From contig ONKQ01000006.1 in assembly GCA_900318465.1 (NCBI GenBank), positions 1 to 64,000 on the forward strand: a stretch of DNA of 64,000 bases, in the 5' to 3' direction. Under the pieces are notes generated by a model that saw only the letters and a program-made list of their open reading frames with translations, was not told where the DNA came from and made no database searches. Below are positions 38,139-47,828 of the stretch, in pieces; position 1 is the stretch's first letter; each line of letters opens with the position of its first letter. Both the position numbers and the translations under genes were made by a program. Source of the DNA: an uncultured Bacteroidales bacterium (GTDB taxonomy: Bacteria; Bacteroidota; Bacteroidia; Bacteroidales; F082).

Positions 38139-38948
38139 TTATTCTATTCTAATCGATTTGATTTCAATTTCAAAGTATTTGTGAGGTTTTTCGTAAGGCA
38201 CGAGTTTGTGGGTAGGGAAGTCGTCGGGAAGATAGACGGCGCACAAGGTGTTGGAAACGTGGTAGATGTGCTTGCGTTTTTCGGTGGGCGCACCGTCGAG
38301 GATGGCTGCCATCACATCCCAGCGGATGGTTTCGGGGTCGAGGGCGTAGTCGTGCCAAATGATGATGCTATGGTCGTTTTTCAGGAGTTTGAAAGCGGTT
38401 TCGGTGTCCTTTTTCACGCTTTCGTAATGGTGGTCGCCGTCGATGAAAACCATATCGTATTTGCCGAAATGTGGCGCAAAGTCGAAGGTTTGCGAATCGC
38501 CGTAAAGTTGCTCCACGTTGGACAAATCCTTGTTGAAGAAACTATGTAAGTCGGCATATAACTTATTGTTAATCAGTTTGATAATATCTTCTTTTGGTAG
38601 GTTGAAGGTGACGCAATGCTCGGCAACATCGGCCAAATTGGCTACACTCTCGCCGCGCCAAGTGCCGATTTCAAAGTAGTCTTGCACCTCGTATTTTTTG
38701 GCCAAAGCCCTCAACAAGGCAATGTCGATGGGCATAGTGGCTCCCGAAAGATAAGCGTAAGGCTTGGCTATTTCGTGGAAGTTGGGAAACAACTCGTTGA
38801 TTTCCAGCAAGGGAAGCCCGTCTTTGAGGCCGTATTTTCTGATGACTTCTTCCTTATTGCTGCCTTCGTCTTGCAAAACGAGGTTGAGCAAATAAGGATG
38901 CCTGATGATGCGCCCGATGGCTTTGGTGAATTTCTGTATCTTATTCAT
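38139..38948 (-). CDS. Class I SAM-dependent methyltransferase (Methyltransf_24-like)
   Basis: 269 residues. The SAM site is in YFEIGTWRGESVANLADVAE, the acidic loop in YDMVFIDGDHHYESVKKDTE, and IIIWHDYALDPETIRWDVM follows. The neighbouring glycosyltransferase and flippase suggest methylation of a polysaccharide sugar, but this is inference. It overlaps the flippase gene upstream by 8 bases. Confidence 0.82.
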   Translation of the reverse strand: MNKIQKFTKAIGRIIRHPYLLNLVLQDEGSNKEEVIRKYGLKDGLPLLEINELFPNFHEIAKPYAYLSGATMPIDIALLRALAKKYEVQDYFEIGTWRGESVANLADVAEHCVTFNLPKEDIIKLINNKLYADLHSFFNKDLSNVEQLYGDSQTFDFAPHFGKYDMVFIDGDHHYESVKKDTETAFKLLKNDHSIIIWHDYALDPETIRWDVMAAILDGAPTEKRKHIYHVSNTLCAVYLPDDFPTHKLVPYEKPHKYFEIEIKSIRIE

Positions 38949-40236
38949 TTTCTGTGTTTTGTTTCAAGAAATGTTGCTTGAGTTCGCCGATATAGTTCCG
39001 TATCTCGCCCTTGGTCAAAAGGAAATCGCGCCCCTTGAAACGCGACTCCTTGACGAAGAACACGAACAGGAAAATGGCGTTCACGGTATATGAAATCGCC
39101 GAGGTGATGGCCGCGCCTGTAACGTTGTATTTTGGTATCAAGGTGAATCCGCATACGAAGGTGGCGACTAATCCGCAGATGGCGGCAAAAGTGTTCATCT
39201 GATAACGCCCGATGCCCGAATAATAGTGTCCGAGGATGAGGAAAATGCAATAGAGCAGGATGCCCGGCGCGAGGATGCGGATGAGATGGGCCATCTCGCC
39301 GAAGTCTTTGCCGAAGACAAAAACGTAAAACTCGGCGGGCAGCAGGCATAACACCGCAACGCCCACCGTCGAAATGAGCAGGCAGATTTTGCTCAAATCG
39401 AGGGTGAGTTTTTGTGAGTAAGTGCGGTCGTCGGCATTGGCAATGCGGGCGTATTGCACCAAGGCGATGCTGTTGCTGATGACCCAAATGGCCTCGGCCA
39501 ACGAAACCGAGCGAGAAAAGACCCCCACCTGACCTCTTCCGATATAACTATCTAATAAATAATAACTTAACCTAAGATTGAAAAACTGCACAAAATGCCC
39601 CGTCTGGTTGAGGAAGCCGTATTTGAACAGGTCTTTTAATGCCGATTTGTAATCTTTGTCCTTGTCATTTCGAAGGTTGGCATATTCCTCTCGCAACATC
39701 CACACACCCAATAGGAAAGTGCCCCCGTAGGCGGCGTAAAGTCCGATGATGTAGCCGTAGATGTCGGACTTTTTCAGCGCAATGTAATACACTGCCAATG
39801 TGATGGTTAGCAGGACGGGCTGGAGCAGTGTGTTGTAGTTGGCCTTCTGGATTTCCTCCTTTCCGACCAAGAAGCGGAAATTGATGTTGCTGAGCGAGGA
39901 GATGAACGACAGAATAGTCACGTGAACGACCAAATCAGGCTCCAACATCGGATAGAAAAGCCTGATACTGAAGCCCATAATCACAGCAATCAAAGCGGAC
40001 CAAACCACCGATGCGACCAAAATCTTCTTGAACGAATGGCGTGGGGCGAGGTAGATAATGCTGGCACCGCACACGATTTCTGAGAAGATGAGGATGAACG
40101 TGATGGAGGCCAGCACTAACGACTGTGTCCCCGACCCCGTGTCGCCCAAGGTCTGCGAGATGATAATGGCGATGAGGAAGTTGAGCGCGGCGGCCAACAT
40201 CTTCGTTCCGAAAGTATTTAGGATTTTTTTGAACAC
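38941..40236 (-). CDS. Polysaccharide flippase (Wzx/MVF-like)
   Basis: Integral membrane transporter that probably moves lipid-linked oligosaccharides to the periplasm. 431 residues with about 12 hydrophobic segments, including MLAAALNFLIAIIISQTLGD, the typical first helix, and paired helices through the C-terminus. First gene of a three-gene minus-strand unit with the methyltransferase (8-base overlap) and the glycosyltransferase. Confidence 0.88.
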   Translation of the reverse strand: MFKKILNTFGTKMLAAALNFLIAIIISQTLGDTGSGTQSLVLASITFILIFSEIVCGASIIYLAPRHSFKKILVASVVWSALIAVIMGFSIRLFYPMLEPDLVVHVTILSFISSLSNINFRFLVGKEEIQKANYNTLLQPVLLTITLAVYYIALKKSDIYGYIIGLYAAYGGTFLLGVWMLREEYANLRNDKDKDYKSALKDLFKYGFLNQTGHFVQFFNLRLSYYLLDSYIGRGQVGVFSRSVSLAEAIWVISNSIALVQYARIANADDRTYSQKLTLDLSKICLLISTVGVAVLCLLPAEFYVFVFGKDFGEMAHLIRILAPGILLYCIFLILGHYYSGIGRYQMNTFAAICGLVATFVCGFTLIPKYNVTGAAITSAISYTVNAIFLFVFFVKESRFKGRDFLLTKGEIRNYIGELKQHFLKQNTENE

Positions 40237-40326
40237 GGAGACAATTTATTGTTGTTGATAAAACGGGTCCAATCTTTACCTTAATTTATGCAACGGCAAA
40301 ATTACAGAAATAATTGCAATCACGTG

Positions 40327-40360
40327 AAAAAGCCGAGAAAAGTCCCCACTTCTCTCGGCT
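40327..40360 (-). terminator. Terminator of the ADP-ribosylglycohydrolase operon
   Basis: Minus strand AGCCGAGA and TCTCGGCT (positions 40360-40353 and 40338-40331) form a perfect 8-bp stem followed by TTTT. Confidence 0.8.
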
Positions 40361-40388
40361 TGGTTCACAATCTTTATAGTGCTTTTTG

Positions 40389-41243
40389 TTATTTCAAGAT
40401 GTTGGGCAGGCGGTACTCGCTGCGCTGTTCCATCTCCTTCAGGATGGCCTTGAAGTCATCGGGAATGAGGCTCCAAATCTTCAAGGCGATGTCGTCCGGA
40501 ATTTCCTTGTAGAACGCTTCCGCGATGCCGCCCGTGATGCAGGCGAGGGTGTCGCTGTCGCCTCCCAATGAGACCGCCAGTCTGATGGCCGACTCGAAAT
40601 CAGTGCTGTCAAAGAAGGCCACCATGGCTTCGGGTACCGTACCTTGACATGAGGAATCCCAGTCGTAAACGGGACGGATTTCGTCGCAAGTTCGGTTGAG
40701 GTTGTAGCCGTATTTTGTTGAGATGTAATTTCTTATCTCTTCCTTGCTCTTGCCGTTGCGGGCCATGAAGATGGCCGCAGCCGTCGATTGCGCCCCTTTG
40801 ATGCCTTCGTGATGGCTGTGGGTGATGGCGGCAGAAAGTCCAGCCACGCGCTCGGTCTCCTCAAGGGTGTCGAACATCCAGCCGTTGGCACTGCAACGCA
40901 TGGCGGCACCGTTACCGAATGAGTTGTAGGGATGACGTGTCCCTGGTTTGAAGTCGCGACTCCCATAATCACCCAATTCTTCAGGATGGAACAGCCAGCG
41001 ATGGAACCCGCCGCCATATCCGCCCATAGGACAGGGATACTTTTTTGCAAAGTCCAAAAACGAGGCTTCCAAAGTGTCCATACTGTGTTGAGGGTCGTTG
41101 AGCAGCCAATTGGCCACGGCCATCGTCATAATGCTGTCGTCAGTGTAGTTGCTCTGCGGGCTGAACAGTGGGAAATGCGTCGTCTTTATGTTGTGAAATT
41201 CATATACCGAACCAACGGTATCTCCTATGATTGCTCCTAACAT
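40389..41243 (-). CDS. ADP-ribosylglycohydrolase family protein
   Basis: Probably removes ADP-ribose from proteins or other targets with Mg2+ help. 284 residues of the DraG/ARH fold: MLGAIIGDTVGSVYEFHNIK, the metal-binding TDDS at 34-37, the AAAIFMARNGKSKEEIRNYI helix region, and GGDSDTLACI (227-236) with the second Asp-Ser-Asp metal motif. Both metal motifs are intact, so it should be active. It is the last gene of a minus-strand unit with a vWA/macro-like protein and an NrtR-like Nudix regulator. Confidence 0.92.
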   Translation of the reverse strand: MLGAIIGDTVGSVYEFHNIKTTHFPLFSPQSNYTDDSIMTMAVANWLLNDPQHSMDTLEASFLDFAKKYPCPMGGYGGGFHRWLFHPEELGDYGSRDFKPGTRHPYNSFGNGAAMRCSANGWMFDTLEETERVAGLSAAITHSHHEGIKGAQSTAAAIFMARNGKSKEEIRNYISTKYGYNLNRTCDEIRPVYDWDSSCQGTVPEAMVAFFDSTDFESAIRLAVSLGGDSDTLACITGGIAEAFYKEIPDDIALKIWSLIPDDFKAILKEMEQRSEYRLPNILK

Positions 41244-41382
41244 GGTGCTTAAATGTTGATTGTTTAATTGTTTAATTGTTGGGCCGATGGTATGGCCTAT
41301 AGCCTATGGCCAGCTTCATCCAAGGCGTGAAAACAGAGCTTTTGGGTGAAGCGGGCCATGAGCTATCAGCCATGGGCCATAG

Positions 41383-42459
41383 TTACACCAGCTCCTTCCA
41401 AAAATCCATTGGCAAATGGATGTTCTCCACATCTACGGCACCGGCAAACAATGGCGCAATTTCCCTCGGCGTGAATCCAGCGATGCCGCATCCGATTTTG
41501 GTGACCAAGAAAGTCAACTCGGGATGTTGCTTGGCGAAGGCAATGAACTCCTCCACGTAAGGAAGGATGGTGTTCGGGCCGCCCTGCATGGTCGGGATGG
41601 CATAGCTTTGTCCTTGCAAACCAACGCCTTGACCCATGATGGCACCGAACTTCTCAACAGCGATACGCGCTGCCCCACCACCGTGCATACCGCGCAAATT
41701 GCTGCCAAAGACGAAGATTTCATTTCTTTTGAGGCTTTTGATGAACTCAGGCGTGATGCGGTTTTGGAACTCGCTCATATCGCGATAGTTACGGTTCTCG
41801 CGGTTCGATTGGGAACGGAACAACTTGCGGGCGATGCTCGACATGCCAGCCGTCTTTGCGGATTCTGTCGAGATGCGGCTGTACATCATCGTGCGCGACT
41901 TGCGTTCCTTTTCCCAAGCTTCGGTCATGCCTGCTTCATCGTCGCGGAAGGCCATTTGGTTTTCGATGGAGAGCGAGGCGGAAGTGGCCTGCACGTCTTG
42001 GTTGGTGCCGATGTAAGCGAAGTTCCAGCCTTCCTCGTCTTTCATGCGCTCCACCAAGGCTTTGATGGCCGCACCGCTATATTCCCTCGATGCGTTTTCA
42101 AGTCCGTCGGTGATGATGGTCACCACGGCGGTGGCGTCTTCCTTGTCCTTGATGTCCTTGTACAAGGCGTTGATGGACAGTCCCATAGCGTCATATAGGG
42201 GTGTACCGCAGCAGGGACGATAGTCGTTTGAGGTCAGCTCCTTGACTTCGGCGACGGGCACCTTGTCGTAAACCATGCGTTTCTCGCAGTTGCAGAAAAT
42301 CATCAGCGAGACAAAATGCTCTTGTGTGTCGTTGAAGCGGTCTTGTGCGGAGCGGATGCCGTCCACGGTTTCATTGAAGCCTGAGATGGCGGCCTTGGCG
42401 ATGCTGCCCATCGAACCGCTCTTGTCGAGGATGATCAGATTGTAAATTTGTGTTTTCAT
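41383..42459 (-). CDS. vWA domain protein fused to a macro-like domain
   Basis: 358 residues. The N-terminal von Willebrand A domain has an intact MIDAS start (LDKSGSMG, D12-S14-S16) and a late Asp (TIITDGLEN). From about residue 235 a second domain reads NEIFVFGSNLRGMHGGGAAR ... TKIGCGIAGFTPREIA. This is of the A1S_2505/macro-like group, a fold that in relatives binds ADP-ribose. The two domains are joined by a basic, Ser/Arg-rich linker. It stands 30 bases after the Nudix regulator and upstream of the ADP-ribosylglycohydrolase, supporting a role around ADP-ribose. Function not established. Confidence 0.8.
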   Translation of the reverse strand: MKTQIYNLIILDKSGSMGSIAKAAISGFNETVDGIRSAQDRFNDTQEHFVSLMIFCNCEKRMVYDKVPVAEVKELTSNDYRPCCGTPLYDAMGLSINALYKDIKDKEDATAVVTIITDGLENASREYSGAAIKALVERMKDEEGWNFAYIGTNQDVQATSASLSIENQMAFRDDEAGMTEAWEKERKSRTMMYSRISTESAKTAGMSSIARKLFRSQSNRENRNYRDMSEFQNRITPEFIKSLKRNEIFVFGSNLRGMHGGGAARIAVEKFGAIMGQGVGLQGQSYAIPTMQGGPNTILPYVEEFIAFAKQHPELTFLVTKIGCGIAGFTPREIAPLFAGAVDVENIHLPMDFWKELV

Positions 42460-42488
42460 AATGATCTAATTGTTTAATTGTTAGTGGG

Positions 42489-43292
42489 TTAGAATTCAAG
42501 TTTAAAATTGCCGTCTTCCTTCAGCTCGTCGTAGCGTCGCTTGTTGAAGCGGAACTTGGTGCCCCAGCGGCGGGTGGAACGGCTGTCGTCGCTCGCGTTG
42601 GAATAGGAAGCATGAGGGTTAGGGATAGAATCGCTAAACAGCGCGTCGATGCTCATGCTGCGCATCTCATTGTGGCTGCCATAGAAATTAGTCGGCGATT
42701 CTTCAACTTCTTCGAGGATGCCGGTTTGCAGCATTTTTTTGTGGAAATTGCGTCGGTCGAATTGTATGCCAAGAATGGCCTCATAGAGCCGTTGCAGTTC
42801 AGGGATGGTAAACTCATTGTCCAACAAGCCGAACCCAATCGGCTCGAAATGAAGGTCTTCGCGCAACTTCTGCATGGCTTTTCGCAGGATAAGGTCGTGG
42901 TCGAAGGCGAGGCGAGGCACGTCATTAAGGCTGAACCATTGGGCTTTTGCCGCATCGTCGCCACCGCTGACTTTAGACTTCTTGGCCAAGGCATAGAAGG
43001 CAATGGTGATGACGCGGGAGCGGGGGTCGCGGTCGACGTCGGAGAAGGCCCCGACTTGTTTCAGGTAGTTGAGGTCAAGCCCCGTTTCTTCCTTCAGTTC
43101 GCGCAAAGCTCCTTGTTCGGCAGTCTCATCCATGTTGAGAAAACCGCCGGGAAAAGCCCATGCGCCTTTGTAGGGTTCCAATCCGCGCTCGATGAGCAGG
43201 ATTTTCAGGTCGCGACCGTCGAAACCAAACACCACGCAATCGGTTGTCACTGCGGGGCGCGGGTAATCATAAGTGTAATGTCCTTTTTGCAT
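42489..43292 (-). CDS. NrtR-like Nudix/winged-helix regulator
   Basis: 267 residues. An intact Nudix box lies at 50-72 (GFLNMDETAEQGAL then RELKEETGL), so hydrolase activity is possible. The C-terminal part (FTIPELQRLYEAILGIQFDR) matches the winged-helix tail of NrtR/AraR-type regulators, in which the Nudix domain senses ADP-ribose, a nucleotide or a sugar. Three palindromes flank its promoter, pointing to autoregulation. It heads the vWA-ADP-ribosylglycohydrolase operon. It may instead be an AraR-type sugar regulator. Confidence 0.85.
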   Translation of the reverse strand: MQKGHYTYDYPRPAVTTDCVVFGFDGRDLKILLIERGLEPYKGAWAFPGGFLNMDETAEQGALRELKEETGLDLNYLKQVGAFSDVDRDPRSRVITIAFYALAKKSKVSGGDDAAKAQWFSLNDVPRLAFDHDLILRKAMQKLREDLHFEPIGFGLLDNEFTIPELQRLYEAILGIQFDRRNFHKKMLQTGILEEVEESPTNFYGSHNEMRSMSIDALFSDSIPNPHASYSNASDDSRSTRRWGTKFRFNKRRYDELKEDGNFKLEF

Positions 43293-43294
43293 CT

Positions 43295-43428
43295 TGTGTA
43301 AATTTGACGCAAAATTACGGTTTTTTTCTTTACCCGCAACATAATTTGTGTAAAATTTACACTTTTATTATAGGAAAATAATATAATGTTTTGATTTATA
43401 ATTGTTTATAATGTGTAATTTATACACA
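43295..43428 (-). promoter_or_regulatory. Nudix-operon promoter with three palindromic operator candidates
   Basis: Promoter, minus strand: TTG 43339-43337, 19 bp, TAATTTTG 43317-43310. Palindromes: TGTGTAAATTTGACGCA (43295-43311, imperfect, overlapping the -7/start region), GTGTAAAATTTACAC (43348-43362, perfect around a central A, just upstream of -33) and TGTGTAATTTATACACA (43412-43428, perfect 6-bp arms). All share TGTGTAA. Site placement suits repression by the encoded regulator. The third site also lies at the end of the antiporter gene upstream. Confidence 0.7.
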
Positions 43429-43439
43429 ATATAAACAGT

Positions 43440-45002
43440 CTAATCTGCAACATCAAAATTTCCTGATTCCACCTTATTATTAATAGCGCCAGGCTTGTCT
43501 TGATGCGCTATAATTTCGGTGATGACCTCGGAATTGAAAACCTCGTCCATAAATTCCTTGGTGTGGCGTTTGTGCCGCGACTTGTCTTTTTCCTTGGTCT
43601 TGGTGACGAAATTCTTCATCTTTTGGTTGAAACTGAACAAGCGAAGATAAAAGCGGTATAGTCCTTTTTCTTTGTCTATCAATGGAATAAGCAAGGAGTT
43701 GATGACGATGGTGAAGAGAATGACCGAGAAGACGATATTCCTCACAAACAAGGCCATTTCGGTATCGGGGATGTAGATGAGAGCTTGCGTGGCCAACACT
43801 GCCGCTGTCAGTCCTTTTGGGTTCAGTGCCGACATGAAGACCAACTCTTTTTCAGGGATGCCTTCTTTCTTGGAGATGGCGAACCGTACGGCAGGGATTC
43901 TGACAATGAACAACAAAACACTGATACCCAATCCAATGACGATGGGTTCCCAACTGTTCAGTTGGATGGAGATGCCGACGTAAATGAAGAAGAAAGTCTT
44001 GAGCAGAAGTACCAATTCCGAAAAGAGGGAACGCTCGGTTTCGTTCAGGTTGACGGGCACTTTTGCAACGAATTTCTTGAGCCATGCGTTGTAGATGCTG
44101 TCAATGTTGGCCAACCCAATGCCGAAGGCCAAGGCCGCGATGGCACCGCTGAAGCCCATCCACTCGTTGAGTCCATAGATGATGAACACAAAGGCCGGCG
44201 TGGTGAGGATGGAGTATTTGATGTTGCGGATTTGGTCGAGAATCAAGGCCCAAAAGATGGCACCGAGGAGTCCCATCACCGTGGCCAAAATGAACGAGGA
44301 GAAGATGTTGCCGAGAATGGCGCCAAACTCAAGGTGCTTGCTTTGTATGGCTTGCATCAAGGCCAAGGCCAAAACGATGCTGAACACGTTGCCGATGGCG
44401 GCTTCAAGGATGAGCATGATAGCGGGTTTTTCGGACATGTGCATCTGCCTGACGATGGGGATGACCACAGCTGAGGCCGTGCCGCCCAACATGCAGCCGA
44501 GAATCATGCTGACCACCGGATTCAACTTTAGGACCAACCAACCGATGAGCCAGATGGCGACAGCCGACAGAATGAAATTCAGCGCAGTGAGTTTCAAGGC
44601 TCCTCCAAAAGAGTCCTTTAATGCGCTGAACCTCAGCTGTGTACCACTCTCAAACAAGATGGTGACCAAAGTGATGCCCGAAAACAGGCTGCCCGCATTG
44701 CCGAGACTTTCCGGCGAAAGCCAATGAAACACGGGACCGATGAGCAAACCAATGATGATGAGAAACAGCACATCGGGGATGCGCTTGCGGCTGAAGATTT
44801 CGCTGAAGAGGTGCGCCGTGAAGATGAGCAGGCCGATGATGGCGATGGTAAGCCCGATTTCGCGCGACGAACTGCCTTTCGACACCTGCTCCATGACAGC
44901 ATCCACAGTTTCAGGCCGACTGACAGCTTCTGCAATTTGCGTGATGGAGTCGTTAAGTCTTGACAATGTATTGGTGGTGGGGATGAGGTCGGATTGGATC
45001 AT
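43440..45002 (-). CDS. Cation/H+ antiporter (CPA-type)
   Basis: Exchanges Na+ or K+ for protons across the inner membrane. 520 residues with about 12 transmembrane helices, including IGLTIAIIGLLIFTAHLFSE, GGTASAVVIPIVRQMHMSEK (the unwound-helix region) and SALNPKGLTAAVLATQALIY near the pore. An acidic/basic cytoplasmic tail of about 80 residues follows. It lies 11 bases after the porin gene on the same strand, so the two may be co-transcribed. Confidence 0.88.
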   Translation of the reverse strand: MIQSDLIPTTNTLSRLNDSITQIAEAVSRPETVDAVMEQVSKGSSSREIGLTIAIIGLLIFTAHLFSEIFSRKRIPDVLFLIIIGLLIGPVFHWLSPESLGNAGSLFSGITLVTILFESGTQLRFSALKDSFGGALKLTALNFILSAVAIWLIGWLVLKLNPVVSMILGCMLGGTASAVVIPIVRQMHMSEKPAIMLILEAAIGNVFSIVLALALMQAIQSKHLEFGAILGNIFSSFILATVMGLLGAIFWALILDQIRNIKYSILTTPAFVFIIYGLNEWMGFSGAIAALAFGIGLANIDSIYNAWLKKFVAKVPVNLNETERSLFSELVLLLKTFFFIYVGISIQLNSWEPIVIGLGISVLLFIVRIPAVRFAISKKEGIPEKELVFMSALNPKGLTAAVLATQALIYIPDTEMALFVRNIVFSVILFTIVINSLLIPLIDKEKGLYRFYLRLFSFNQKMKNFVTKTKEKDKSRHKRHTKEFMDEVFNSEVITEIIAHQDKPGAINNKVESGNFDVAD

Positions 45003-45013
45003 GATAGGTGGGT

Positions 45014-47119
45014 TTAGTTGAACAACCTCCAGTTGACGCCGATGAAGATTTTGCTACTGCGCATGGGGTAGTGGGGCGCGATGAAGGCATTGTAGTTGCC
45101 CGTGAGCAGGAACATGTTGCTGTACGAAACAAACACATTGGCTTTCTTTATCTTGAGGGCTATGGCAAGGTCGATGTAGGGGAAGTTTCCGATTTCTACG
45201 TCGTTTTGGAGGTAAAATGTGCGTGTGGCAGGCATGAAAGCGTCGGCGTGGAATTTGGTGAAGTAGGTCACCGTCAGCATGGGCTGCAAGGTGGCTGCCT
45301 TGCGGAAGATGGGTTGGGAATAGGAGAATCTCAACCGACCCAAGAACAAAGGCAGGTGTATCACATCTTCGTTGCTTGCTTTCTGTACGCAGGCAAAACC
45401 TTCAAAATCAAAGCGTTTCAGGCTTTGGCGGAAACTGAGATAGGCCTCGCGGATGCTGAACATGCCATCGTATTGCGTGGGACGTGCTTCGGTGCCAAAG
45501 TAGATGTATTGGGCGATGCTGGTTTGTTTCACACCGATGCAATACTCGCGGAAGGTGTACTTGAGGTCGAAGGTGAGGTAGGTCGAGGCACGGAAGTCGT
45601 TCTCCCAACGGAAATGGTTGGAGTAGTAGCTTTCCTCGAACCAGCTGGCCGACTGCCGCTTGATTTCGGCGTTGAAGATGGCGGCGCCAAAGTTGCGCTC
45701 TGTTGTGCCCAAAAACTGTTTCCATTGCCCCCTGATGTCGAAATCGCCGATATGGTAGCCCAAAGTGACAAGGTCGGCTTGCCCCGTGATGCGCGTGGAG
45801 CGGAACAGATTGATGATGATGCCACCGTTGACGCTAAGTTGTTGGTAGTTGCGGACGGTGACAGATTCACCCTCAATGTAGTCATAATGCCTTAGCTTGT
45901 AAAAACCGTGCGTAAGGCCGGCGTAAAGGAAGAAAGGTATGTCGTCGTTGTATTTCTGATAGCCTAAACTATTCCATTTCAATGTGTTGCGTATGGCTTG
46001 CACAACAACGGAATCGGTGGTCTTGGTTGGGTTGAAAAGCGAGTCATGGGGTTGGTAAAACGCCACGGAAGGTGAGCTCTCGTTGTAGGTTAGGCTGTTG
46101 CGTTGGAAGTTGAACTCATGGCAGATGCGTCCCAAGGTGAATTTCCGTGTTTTGGTCTCGTAACGGACGGGTTGGCTGTCGATGATGCTGTCTCGCAAAG
46201 GCATGATGGAGTCAACCATCAGAGAGTCAATCATTAAGGAGTCAACGCTCGGAGAAACAATTCTTAGGGAATCAATAGTGAGGCTGTCGAGGGTAGGGCG
46301 GGGAAGTGGTTTCTCAACAACGGTTTTCGTGGTTTGCGGCAGCAGGTTGAAATAATGTTCGAACCCTATGCCGCTCGATTTGATGAAGGTGGTCGCGTTG
46401 CTGAGGTTGGTAGTGATGACGGAGTTGTCGGTTTCAGTGTGAGAAATGTAAGTCTCATCGTTCACAATGCCGCCGTTTTCCTGCATATCCAACTTGTTTC
46501 GATAGGCGTAAAACAACGCTGCATATCGTTGGTTTTCAGTAAAATAATGTGCATTAATCCAAAAGTAGTTGTTGGTCGACTTGTTGTTTTTGAAGACGCC
46601 TGGCGACATCTCCGACTTGATGGCAAACGACACGAACAGTCGCCGCAGGAATTGCCGTCCGAAGCGGACGTTGAGATGTTGCTCCTTGTCGCCCGAGGTC
46701 ATCACATAGCGCACTTCGGAATAAGGCAACACGCTTTGGTAACAGATTATGTTGCGCTCATTTTGGATGAAGGCGTTATAGGCTGGTAGGCTCATGTCGA
46801 AACCTGTGTCTCTCAAGTTCTTGAATCGCATCGACTTATGCGCCAATCCAGTGTTGCTCAGTGTGTTGTAAACGGTATGCTCTTTCTCCAAAGGCTCGAA
46901 AATGGGTGCATGGAAGGTGCTTGTGTCAACGACTTTTGTGCTTTTCAAGAAAATGCTGTCGAAATGGTAACTTGTGTAGGTGACGAAGGTGGAATCGATG
47001 GGAAACGAAGGGACGGCTTTCGGTTTTTTGGGCACAACAGAATCTTGGGAAGGCTCTTGAGAAAAACCTAACAAACTGAATGTCAAAATAATGAATATGT
47101 AAAGTAGTCGTTTCCGCAT
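45014..47119 (-). CDS. Bacteroidota 'putative porin' beta-barrel protein
   Basis: 701 residues with a signal peptide (MRKRLLYIFIILTFSLLGFS) and a large C-terminal beta-barrel rich in alternating aromatic strands, ending NWRLFN. The stretch RFGRQFLRRLFVSFAIKSEM and YFWINAHYFTENQRYAALFY belong to the family called putative porin (PF14121-type). A low-complexity segment around residue 280-310 (SLTIDSLRIVSPSVDSLMID) repeats DSLxI/V units in a periplasmic or surface loop. Function in nutrient uptake is assumed, not shown. Confidence 0.82.
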   Translation of the reverse strand: MRKRLLYIFIILTFSLLGFSQEPSQDSVVPKKPKAVPSFPIDSTFVTYTSYHFDSIFLKSTKVVDTSTFHAPIFEPLEKEHTVYNTLSNTGLAHKSMRFKNLRDTGFDMSLPAYNAFIQNERNIICYQSVLPYSEVRYVMTSGDKEQHLNVRFGRQFLRRLFVSFAIKSEMSPGVFKNNKSTNNYFWINAHYFTENQRYAALFYAYRNKLDMQENGGIVNDETYISHTETDNSVITTNLSNATTFIKSSGIGFEHYFNLLPQTTKTVVEKPLPRPTLDSLTIDSLRIVSPSVDSLMIDSLMVDSIMPLRDSIIDSQPVRYETKTRKFTLGRICHEFNFQRNSLTYNESSPSVAFYQPHDSLFNPTKTTDSVVVQAIRNTLKWNSLGYQKYNDDIPFFLYAGLTHGFYKLRHYDYIEGESVTVRNYQQLSVNGGIIINLFRSTRITGQADLVTLGYHIGDFDIRGQWKQFLGTTERNFGAAIFNAEIKRQSASWFEESYYSNHFRWENDFRASTYLTFDLKYTFREYCIGVKQTSIAQYIYFGTEARPTQYDGMFSIREAYLSFRQSLKRFDFEGFACVQKASNEDVIHLPLFLGRLRFSYSQPIFRKAATLQPMLTVTYFTKFHADAFMPATRTFYLQNDVEIGNFPYIDLAIALKIKKANVFVSYSNMFLLTGNYNAFIAPHYPMRSSKIFIGVNWRLFN

Positions 47120-47180
47120 CTGTTGGAAATCACGCTGTAAAATTAGTAAAAAAGTTGTGAATAATAGCCAACTGCTTTTT

Positions 47181-47828
47181 TCAATCCGTCTTTTCGTTGG
47201 ATTTGAATGTCGTTCCTTGGCTTGTCTGAATCAGTTTCAAGGTGCCGATGCTGACGAAATCGGCAAGTATGGCTTCGGCCTTGCGTTTCCCGATATGGGC
47301 CAATTGTTGAAACTCTTTCGTCGTGATTTCTTGGTTTTCAGTGAGATAACGGAGCAACAAGGTTTCTGCTTCACTGAAGGTGATTTTTGCGGCATGATGG
47401 TATTTTTCCGCTTGCCACACCTTGACCAATACATTGTCGGCCACAAGATTCTCATCGGCCACACGGATAAACACCTTGTAATGTCCCTCATGGTCAGGGG
47501 CTTTGTGTTTGTCTTTCAAGTCTTTAGGGATGATGACCTCAAGCACGGCCTTGCCTCCAACGTTCCATTCTTTAGTATTATAGTCGACTGGGGGCTGGCA
47601 ATACATTTCGGCGGCGGCCTCAATCATGTGTATTTCCTCGGCTGAGCGCACTCCGGCAATGGTACCGTTGTCTTTCACGCCCACCAACAAACGTCCGCCA
47701 TCGGTATTGGCAAAGGCGGCGAGCGAGCGGGCAATCTTGCGGCTGTCCGAAATCTCAAACTTGAAGTCGAGGGTTTGGTGCTCTCCTTCGCTGATCAGGT
47801 CTTGTATGTGATGGCTTCGGGTTTTCAT
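47181..47828 (-). CDS. AlbA_2 (Schlafen-like) domain protein
   Basis: 215 residues: the AlbA_2 region is HQTLDFKFEISDSRKIARSL and AAFANTDGGRLLVGVKDNG, followed by a C-terminal winged-helix-like part (LLLRYLTENQEITTKEFQQL). Proteins of this group are putative transcription regulators or RNA/DNA-binding enzymes. Single gene, -7 box TATTTTTG at 47844-47837 (minus). An AT-rich gap lies upstream. Confidence 0.85.
   Translation of the reverse strand: MKTRSHHIQDLISEGEHQTLDFKFEISDSRKIARSLAAFANTDGGRLLVGVKDNGTIAGVRSAEEIHMIEAAAEMYCQPPVDYNTKEWNVGGKAVLEVIIPKDLKDKHKAPDHEGHYKVFIRVADENLVADNVLVKVWQAEKYHHAAKITFSEAETLLLRYLTENQEITTKEFQQLAHIGKRKAEAILADFVSIGTLKLIQTSQGTTFKSNEKTD

What the first reader, a model, noticed from the sequence alone, without database searches (positions are those of the whole stretch)
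40389..43292. Operon joining an NrtR-like Nudix regulator, a vWA/macro-like fusion and an ADP-ribosylglycohydrolase
All three proteins point to ADP-ribose: the regulator family can sense ADP-ribose or related ligands, macro-like folds bind it, and ADP-ribosylglycohydrolases remove it from targets. The vWA part adds a metal-dependent protein-binding module. No ADP-ribosyltransferase is present, so the system may respond to external or phage-encoded ADP-ribosylation or guard NAD metabolism. I know of no described system with this exact set.
Basis: partly seen in the sequence, partly recalled or inferred. Interest (0 to 1): 0.75.

Follow-up and report, generated by a model that had tools for sequence, protein, structure and literature searches.

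The report
Self-regulated ADP-ribose clearing operon
Three neighbouring bacterial genes form one self-controlled unit that probably senses ADP-ribose tags and removes them, perhaps undoing damage done by phages or rival bacteria; a related set-up was predicted in print in 2022 but, as far as I saw, not tested.

Summary
Three minus-strand genes form an operon: a NrtR-type Nudix/winged-helix regulator, a vWA domain fused to an 'A1S_2505' domain, and an ARH3-like ADP-ribosylglycohydrolase (ARG). AlphaFold and Foldseek give the A1S_2505 domain a compact macro fold (nearest Poa1p and TARG1); sequence profiles barely detect this. The operon has its own switch: three operators around a Bacteroidetes-type promoter, including the genome's only perfect copy of the motif, conserved in close relatives. 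The regulator keeps the Nudix catalytic glutamates that NrtR and AraR have lost, so it may hydrolyse its own ligand. Elsewhere the A1S domain is fused to ARG, Nudix, a DSP phosphatase or an HTH, or lies beside KptA, so an ADP-ribose theme is well supported. PMC9503650 (2022) already predicted ARG operons with Nudix regulators and vWA 'chaperones' that counter viral ADP-ribosylation, so the idea is not new. The Bacteroidales form, the vWA-macro fusion, the operator array and the catalytic-looking regulator appear to be. Best reading: an ADP-ribose-inducible de-ADP-ribosylation module. Its opponent (phage, rival bacterium or own metabolism) is undetermined. New variant of a predicted kind.

The parts
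42489..43292 (-). NrtR-type regulator, 267 aa: Nudix domain (residues 14-137) plus winged-helix DNA-binding domain (from residue 153) and a C-terminal extension
   Evidence: Pfam; PDB: AraR 5bs6 4.4e-45, 3gz5 4.6e-26 (that 3gz5 is SoNrtR is recalled)
43077..43145 (-). Nudix box GX5EX7REUXEEXGU, intact
   Evidence: Window sequence; strict box in 30 of 34 NrtR proteins of L032-L068, the other four keep Glu/Asp at the catalytic positions; impaired in NrtR/AraR according to PMC4666351
41860..42459 (-). vWA domain (residues 1-200) with complete MIDAS (DxSGS, T86, D118)
   Evidence: Alignment A2; MIDAS pattern in 35 of 35 vWA proteins of L032-L068; Foldseek vWA/integrin-I and TFIIH vWA folds
41386..41793 (-). 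A1S_2505 domain (residues 223-358), macro fold
   Evidence: NCBIfam NF049995; AlphaFold pLDDT 95.8; eight of the nine best PDB Foldseek hits are Poa1p or TARG1/C6orf130
40389..41243 (-). ADP-ribosylglycohydrolase (ARG/ARH3-like), motifs TDD (34-36) and GGDSDT (227-232) present
   Evidence: PF03747 1.2e-33; ARH3 8e-17; motifs in 24 of 24 ARG of L032-L068
43348..43362 (.). Operator O2, perfect GTGTAAAATTTACAC, the only perfect site in the genome
   Evidence: conserved position in relatives
43296..43310 (.). Operator O3, beginning at the last base of the -7 box
43413..43427 (.). Operator O1, 65 bp upstream of O2
43310..43317 (-). -7 box TAATTTTG
   Evidence: TAnnTTTG with TTG 15-22 nt before it in 35 of 40 upstream regions examined, no shuffled control; consensus recalled
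43337..43339 (-). -33 TTG, 19 nt before the -7 box
   Evidence: 19 nt in 33 of the 35 regions
40330..40361 (-). Terminator-like hairpin 27 nt after the ARG stop codon, followed by U run
   Evidence: -23.3 kcal/mol for 40322-40366, z -4.75; inverted repeat I4; not listed by the consensus scan
41282..41378 (-). Long imperfect hairpin between vWA-A1S and ARG, single copy in the genome
   Evidence: z -4.99; one copy

Best explanation
An autoregulated, ADP-ribose-inducible clearance operon. Apo-NrtR dimers sit on three operators that flank and cover the promoter and keep the operon low. When ADP-ribose or a close derivative accumulates, it binds the Nudix domain, the winged helices move and transcription rises. 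The ARG protein cuts ADP-ribose off proteins or nucleic-acid ends. The vWA-macro protein docks on modified proteins through its metal-dependent vWA domain and binds or hydrolyses a second ADP-ribose linkage with its macro fold. The Nudix domain of the regulator, which keeps its catalytic glutamates, may then split free ADP-ribose into AMP and ribose-5-phosphate, resetting the switch. Shown here: gene order, domains, intact active-site motifs, predicted macro fold, operator-promoter geometry, conservation and reshuffling. Inferred: ligand, repression, all enzyme activities, docking. Guessed: that the source is a phage or competitor ADP-ribosyltransferase.
For: Conserved cassette. Reshuffled fusions of the same macro-like domain: ARG-A1S in L009 and L011 and Nudix-A1S in L010; ARG, Nudix, vWA and an A1S protein in one cluster in L073, L074 and L079; A1S-DSP phosphatase in L085. 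Predicted macro fold nearest to Poa1p and TARG1, several entries ADP-ribose-bound. Operator array: 3 of the genome's 11 near-matches, including the only perfect one, lie in this promoter, at constant positions in close relatives. R91 aligns with SoNrtR's ADP-ribose contact Arg98, which is Gly in AraR. Nudix, MIDAS and ARG motifs kept. Terminator-like hairpin after ARG.
Against: No activity, ligand or repression tested. SoNrtR's Asn43 (alpha-phosphate contact) is Leu38 here, and the closest solved relative binds arabinose. Canonical macro profiles do not detect the domain; no PDB Foldseek hit reaches E 0.001, although probabilities are near 0.99 for the best. No partner is obligatory: ARG is absent downstream in 7 of 30 loci with room; L064 and L008/L274 have NrtR and vWA without A1S beside them; in G028 and G090 ARG lies on another contig. 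Across 26 genus genomes presence of A1S and of ARG is not associated (Fisher p = 1.0; vWA-ARG 0.10; A1S-vWA 0.03). More distant regulators (L009, L068) show no such operators. A long hairpin lies between genes 2 and 3, so ARG may be regulated separately.
Confidence: 0.58

Rival explanations
1. Host defence against phage ADP-ribosyltransferases, the purpose proposed for ARG-centred operons in PMC9503650: phage ARTs modify host proteins, and the operon detects and reverses this.
For: No ART or sirtuin among the four neighbours typed; the component set matches the published prediction; architectures are reshuffled among relatives, and the regulator, vWA and ARG lie together in only 6 of 26 genus genomes, patchy as conflict systems are; phages carry the A1S module in 451 of 50,697 records, and a BFVD phage protein named ART-PolyVal-like (cr116_1) contains a domain that matches the A1S model.
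Against: PADLOC gives nothing for ARG and vWA-A1S and only PDC-S07 for the Nudix. Ordinary chromosomal context with Na/H antiporter and porin neighbours shared by many relatives. Some vWA or A1S homologue is present in 22 of 26 genus genomes. Phage carriage fits counter-defence equally well.
Confidence: 0.35
2. Orphan immunity against ADP-ribosylating toxins of rival bacteria: an inducible relative of the immunity glycohydrolases BAH (against Bxa) and Tri1 (against Tre1; that pairing recalled).
For: BAH, an ARH1-family hydrolase, neutralises the Bacteroides ART toxin Bxa (PMC11699363 abstract and passages). The window ARG hits the Tri1 model weakly (4.6e-11).
Against: The Tri1 score is far below its cut-off (42 versus 490). 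No toxin or secretion gene among the four neighbours typed. In the passages read, the known immunity genes sit beside their toxin, and no ligand-sensing regulator is mentioned.
Confidence: 0.2
3. Housekeeping recycling of NAD by-products such as O-acetyl-ADP-ribose or ADP-ribose; no conflict involved.
For: In L073 a SIR2 gene lies between ARG and Nudix; the genome has two SIR2 genes; Nudix relatives of the regulator are near-universal in the family (90 of 100 genomes at 1e-30), and the operon's regulator is the only one at that threshold in this genome; macro and ARH3 enzymes hydrolyse O-acetyl-ADP-ribose (recalled).
Against: A vWA protein-docking module and its fusion to the macro domain are not expected for small-molecule recycling; no SIR2 or NAD biosynthesis gene among the four neighbours typed.
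Confidence: 0.25
4. RNA-end repair: the macro domain removes the 1''-phosphate or terminal ADP-ribose left by KptA/Tpt1.
For: Nearest solved fold is Poa1p; one relative has KptA directly upstream of an A1S gene (L275); ARH3-like and macro enzymes remove ADP-ribose from RNA phosphate ends (PMC11833690 abstract and passages).
Against: No KptA found in this genome; no RNA ligase among the four neighbours typed.
Confidence: 0.1
5. Sugar regulator of the AraR/XylR type with chance neighbours.
For: AraR is the closest solved structure (157.7 versus 95.3 bits for 3gz5); AraR_C hit 1.3e-6.
Against: Cleft-filling residues of AraR (Phe36, Leu67, Gly89) are Leu38, Glu69 and Arg91 here; Nudix box intact; operators concentrate at its own promoter; recurring ADP-ribose partners.
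Confidence: 0.04

Closest known systems
ARG-centred host systems predicted in PMC9503650 (2022), section 3.8
   Same: ARG without a coupled ART, Nudix-HTH regulator, vWA protein, optional macro domain; same proposed logic of ADP-ribose-released repression
   Different: No phosphatase in the window operon (DSP phosphatases occur with ARG or A1S in relatives); vWA and macro-like domains fused into one protein; Bacteroidales, not named in that text (0 occurrences of 'Bacteroid'); operators and promoter mapped here; Nudix catalytic motif intact. Supplements and figures of the paper not seen
NrtR (Shewanella) and AraR (BT0354, 5bs6) regulators
   Same: Nudix plus winged helix; AraR also uses tandem operators (PMC4666351 passages)
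   Different: Intact Nudix box; dedicated ADP-ribose clearing operon instead of NAD or arabinose genes; longer C-terminal extension
A1S_2505 family (NF049995), phage N4 gp13, Poa1p/TARG1 macrodomains
   Same: Same A1S domain in phages; macro fold
   Different: Here fused to vWA in a host operon; sequence too far for canonical macro profiles. Two Erwinia phage records already label the matching gene a Poa1p-type macro domain
BAH/Bxa and Tri1/Tre1 immunity pairs
   Same: ARH-type hydrolase that can undo ADP-ribosylation
   Different: No toxin gene among the neighbours typed; sensor-regulator and vWA-macro partner present

Membership tests
ARG-centred anti-ADP-ribosylation systems (PMC9503650) | ARG gene not coupled to an ART or sirtuin | tested here: met
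   Pfam of the operon and four neighbours at 38941-47828; but SIR2 lies in the cluster of relative L073
ARG-centred anti-ADP-ribosylation systems (PMC9503650) | Nudix (or WYL) HTH one-component regulator (stated for over 42% of systems) | tested here: met
   operators. Repression itself not tested
ARG-centred anti-ADP-ribosylation systems (PMC9503650) | Peptide-binding chaperone such as vWA | tested here: met
   vWA with MIDAS; chaperone activity not testable
ARG-centred anti-ADP-ribosylation systems (PMC9503650) | Phosphatase (R-P type) coupled to ARG, stated for a little over 55% of systems | tested here: not met
   None among the operon and four neighbours; DSP/R-P phosphatases with ARG or A1S in L268 and L085. 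Not obligatory in the paper
ARG-centred anti-ADP-ribosylation systems (PMC9503650) | Protects against viral ADP-ribosylation | not testable with these tools
   A proposal in section 3.8 as read
NrtR family | Nudix plus NrtR winged helix | tested here: met
   PF21906 66 bits over cut-off 27
NrtR family | Impaired Nudix box | tested here: not met
   Box intact; impairment in NrtR stated in PMC4666351
NrtR family | ADP-ribose contacts of SoNrtR (Arg41, Asn43, Lys76, Arg98) | tested here: inconclusive
   Arg41 and Arg98 kept as R36 and R91; Asn43 and Lys76 are L38 and E69 (my mapping, chain numbers offset by three)
NrtR family | NCBIfam equivalog for the ADPR-responsive repressor (NF050029) at its cut-off | tested here: not met
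   131 versus 400 bits
AraR (Bacteroides) | Nucleotide cleft filled by Phe36, Leu67, Gly89; arabinose genes nearby | tested here: not met
   L38, E69, R91; no sugar catabolic gene among four neighbours typed
Macro domain superfamily (A1S_2505 domain) | Macro fold | tested here: met
   Predicted model; eight of the nine best Foldseek hits are Poa1p or TARG1/C6orf130: probability 0.99-1.00, TM 0.56-0.63, E 0.011-0.046; none reaches E 0.001
Macro domain superfamily (A1S_2505 domain) | Sequence-profile match to PF01661-type macro | tested here: not met
   No Pfam hit; hhalign 0.2%
Macro domain superfamily (A1S_2505 domain) | ADP-ribose binding | not testable with these tools
   Conserved G-S-N-x2-G-x-H and IGCGIAG loops only
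Tri1 / DraG equivalogs | NCBIfam cut-off | tested here: not met
   42 versus 490 and 40 versus 337 bits

The most novel reading that the evidence does not exclude
A bacterial ADP-ribosylation damage response with a self-resetting switch: the repressor is itself an ADP-ribose pyrophosphatase that senses and destroys the signal, and the vWA-macro protein is a receptor that grips ADP-ribosylated proteins while ARG and the macro domain strip them. The A1S module would be a mobile ADP-ribose 'eraser/reader' shared by hosts and phages and plugged into sensors, erasers, docking domains and DNA-binding domains.
Probability: 0.27. Interest if true: 0.8.

Novelty: new variant of a known kind. Interest (0 to 1): 0.5.

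Why it matters
Host systems that reverse foreign ADP-ribosylation were predicted in 2022; I saw no test of them in the papers and passages read. This operon gives a compact three-gene version with a mapped promoter and operator array, a defined candidate ligand and a macro-fold module that recurs in phages. That makes the ligand, the enzyme specificity and the phage question directly testable, and it offers a natural candidate for an ADP-ribose-responsive expression switch.

Tried and rejected
Sugar-regulator reading: rejected on residues, operator distribution and partners. Direct sequence proof of macro homology: failed (hhalign 0.2%; PDB profile E = 0.1), so the macro claim rests on a predicted fold. 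DarT or KptA in the own genome as ADP-ribose source: none found; SIR2 twice; other ART families were not searched. Repeat-family idea for the hairpin between genes 2 and 3: only one copy in the genome. Simple co-occurrence of gene presence across the genus: A1S with ARG p = 1.0, vWA with ARG p = 0.10, A1S with vWA p = 0.03; only physical linkage and fusion are informative. PADLOC: only PDC-S07 for the Nudix protein. Literature searches (listings; passages or sections of five papers) showed no description of this operon apart from the prediction in PMC9503650. The library holds open-licence papers only; the original NrtR regulon paper was not held.
Full report
What is there. The window comes from a 3.67-Mb, 132-contig genome. 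The 39 loci found with the middle protein in the named collection are mostly Bacteroidales MAGs, many with rumen or gut labels, so the genome is probably a rumen-type Bacteroidales (inference). Three minus-strand genes follow one another: regulator 42489-43292, vWA-A1S 41383-42459, ARG 40389-41243. A terminator-like hairpin follows the ARG stop codon. Four neighbours were typed: upstream a Na/H antiporter, a porin and a Schlafen AlbA_2 protein, downstream a polysaccharide flippase-like gene.

Regulator. Pfam gives NUDIX and NrtR_WHD over their cut-offs. The best solved relatives are AraR 5bs6 (4.4e-45), 2fml (2.4e-33) and 3gz5 (4.6e-26, SoNrtR by recall). According to PMC4666351 (passages and section 14) the Nudix box is impaired in NrtR and AraR. 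Here it is intact, and in L032-L068 it is intact in 30 of 34 NrtR proteins; of the other four, one has Asp for Glu and three have His or Arg for the late Gly. AraR fills the nucleotide cleft with Phe36, Leu67 and Gly89; the window protein has Leu38, Glu69 and Arg91, and Arg91 aligns with SoNrtR Arg98, which contacts ADP-ribose (my mapping). Against this, SoNrtR Asn43 is Leu38, and the NCBIfam model for the ADPR-responsive repressor scores 131 against a cut-off of 400. RDPR is present in 34 of 34. The ligand is therefore probably a nucleotide sugar, but this is inference.

Switch. GTGTAAANTTTACAC with up to two mismatches occurs 11 times in the genome (control 7); the single perfect site and two others lie within 132 bp upstream of the regulator. 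Of the 33 regulator-bearing loci in L032-L065, 31 have two or more such sites (up to three mismatches) between -300 and +60; L041 has none and L042 one, and in both the called start lies further upstream. The two sites nearest the start are 52-53 bp apart in most loci, the outer pair mostly 64-65 bp. A TAnnTTTG box with TTG 15-22 nt before it (Bacteroidetes promoter consensus, recalled; no shuffled control) was found in 35 of 40 upstream regions, with 19 nt in 33 of them; in 34 of the 35 an operator-like site begins 7 nt after the start of the box. The 40 include the window and apparently four pairs of copies of the same locus; the five misses are L009, L041, L042, L043 and L065. More distant regulators (L009, L068) show no such sites.

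vWA-A1S. No Pfam match up to E 0.1. MIDAS residues are kept in 35 of 35 vWA proteins of L032-L068; the full-length AlphaFold model has pLDDT 94.7 and matches vWA folds. The C-terminal domain alone (73-sequence alignment) gave pLDDT 95.8 and pTM 0.90. Its PDB Foldseek list has no hit at E 0.001 or better, but eight of the nine best hits are Poa1p or TARG1/C6orf130 (probability 0.99-1.00, E 0.011-0.046), and most of the 50 listed are macrodomains; exceptions include a Bacteroides protein of unknown function, designed serine hydrolases and a PTS protein. Sequence methods do not carry this: PDB profile search E = 0.1 to macroH2A, hhalign 0.2% against 13 Bacteroidales macro domains.

ARG. ARH3 is the closest solved type (8e-17); the TDD and GGDSDT motifs are kept in 24 of 24 ARG proteins of L032-L068. 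Scores for the Tri1 and DraG equivalogs are far below cut-off.

Linkage. Of 39 loci (L032-L065) carry the vWA-A1S protein or its vWA part; L064 has vWA without A1S, and L036, L059 and L063 are cut by contig ends. NrtR is directly upstream in 33 of 34 and ARG directly downstream in 24 of 34; 7 of the 30 loci with at least 1.2 kb downstream have no ARG there. The other five loci (L066-L070) carry other arrangements. The cassette persists where flanks differ. Reshuffling: ARG-A1S (L009, L011), Nudix-A1S (L010), Nudix and A1S as overlapping genes (L015, L031), an A1S protein divergent from vWA (L013, L014, L017-L019; the N-terminal part was typed in L013 only, HTH/sigma-70 region-4-like near cut-off), ARG, Nudix, vWA and an A1S protein of that size together (L073, L074, L079), A1S-DUF1810 (L068 typed, L067 alike), A1S-DUF7666 (L070); A1S-DSP phosphatase (L085), ARG-DSP-ARG (L268), A1S next to KptA (L275), SIR2 between ARG and Nudix (L073). 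In 100 genomes of the family, 29 have a vWA or A1S match and 6 the full-length fusion. In the 26 genomes of the genus A1S and ARG lie within 5 kb in 8 of the 11 that have both, A1S and vWA in 12 of 16, and regulator, vWA and ARG together in 6; presence of A1S and ARG is not associated. In 296 genomes of the phylum 4 have A1S at E <= 1e-10, this genome included. In phages A1S occurs in 451 of 50,697 records, including N4, and the model matches a domain of a BFVD phage protein named ART-PolyVal-like.

Known or new. PMC9503650 section 3.8 (read in full) predicts ARG-centred host systems with Nudix or WYL regulators, phosphatases, vWA and other chaperones and optional macro domains, released by ADP-ribose, to reverse viral ADP-ribosylation. 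The window operon meets the ARG, Nudix-HTH and vWA features, lacks the phosphatase (which the paper does not require), and adds a vWA-macro fusion in a lineage that text does not name (figures and supplements not seen). I therefore rate it a new variant of a predicted kind. Whether the opponent is phage, rival toxin or own NAD by-products cannot be told from sequence: SIR2 in the L073 cluster and two SIR2 genes in this genome favour metabolism; BAH/Bxa (PMC11699363, abstract and passages) shows that the toxin reading is realistic in Bacteroides; patchy occurrence of the whole operon and phage carriage of A1S fit conflict. PMC12846349 (passages) describes a Poa1p-like macro protein in a Pseudomonas phage; I did not test whether it is an A1S protein.

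Noticed in passing
41282-41378: Long imperfect hairpin (z -4.99) between vWA-A1S and ARG, single copy in the genome; possible attenuator or processing site that uncouples ARG.
   Followed up: partly
41257-41280 and 42459-42482: The same 16-nt AT-rich repeat TAATTGTTTAATTGTT (plus strand) lies just before the start codons of both downstream genes.
   Followed up: no
L268:3364-5928: 854-aa protein with two ARG domains flanking a DSP-type phosphatase, on a stretch with two A1S genes and a Nudix gene.
   Followed up: partly
L275:631-5493: Cluster of R-P/DSP phosphatase, KptA, A1S protein and a GP30.3-NT5C fusion, with PP2C and vWA a few kb on; looks like a phage or mobile ADP-ribose island.
   Followed up: partly
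L085:1533-2903: A1S domain fused to a DSP-PTPase on a 77-kb viral contig that also has ARG, GP30.3-NT5C and vWA (L157).
   Followed up: partly
L269:1510-2964: 484-aa protein with an HTH, an ARG domain and a weak C-terminal A1S match: regulator and erasers in one chain.
   Followed up: partly
L067:5713-6771 and L068:3534-4595: A1S fused to DUF1810 (Pfam-typed in L068), which hints at an ADP-ribose role for that uncharacterised domain; L068 also has NrtR and vWA-A1S nearby.
   Followed up: no
L013:817-1908 and L018:1486-2586: A1S at the end of a protein whose first half looks like a sigma-70 region-4/HTH protein (typed in L013), divergent from vWA: a possible ADP-ribose-sensing transcription factor.
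   Followed up: no
47181-47828: Schlafen AlbA_2-domain protein upstream of the porin; not linked to the operon by any test here.
   Followed up: no
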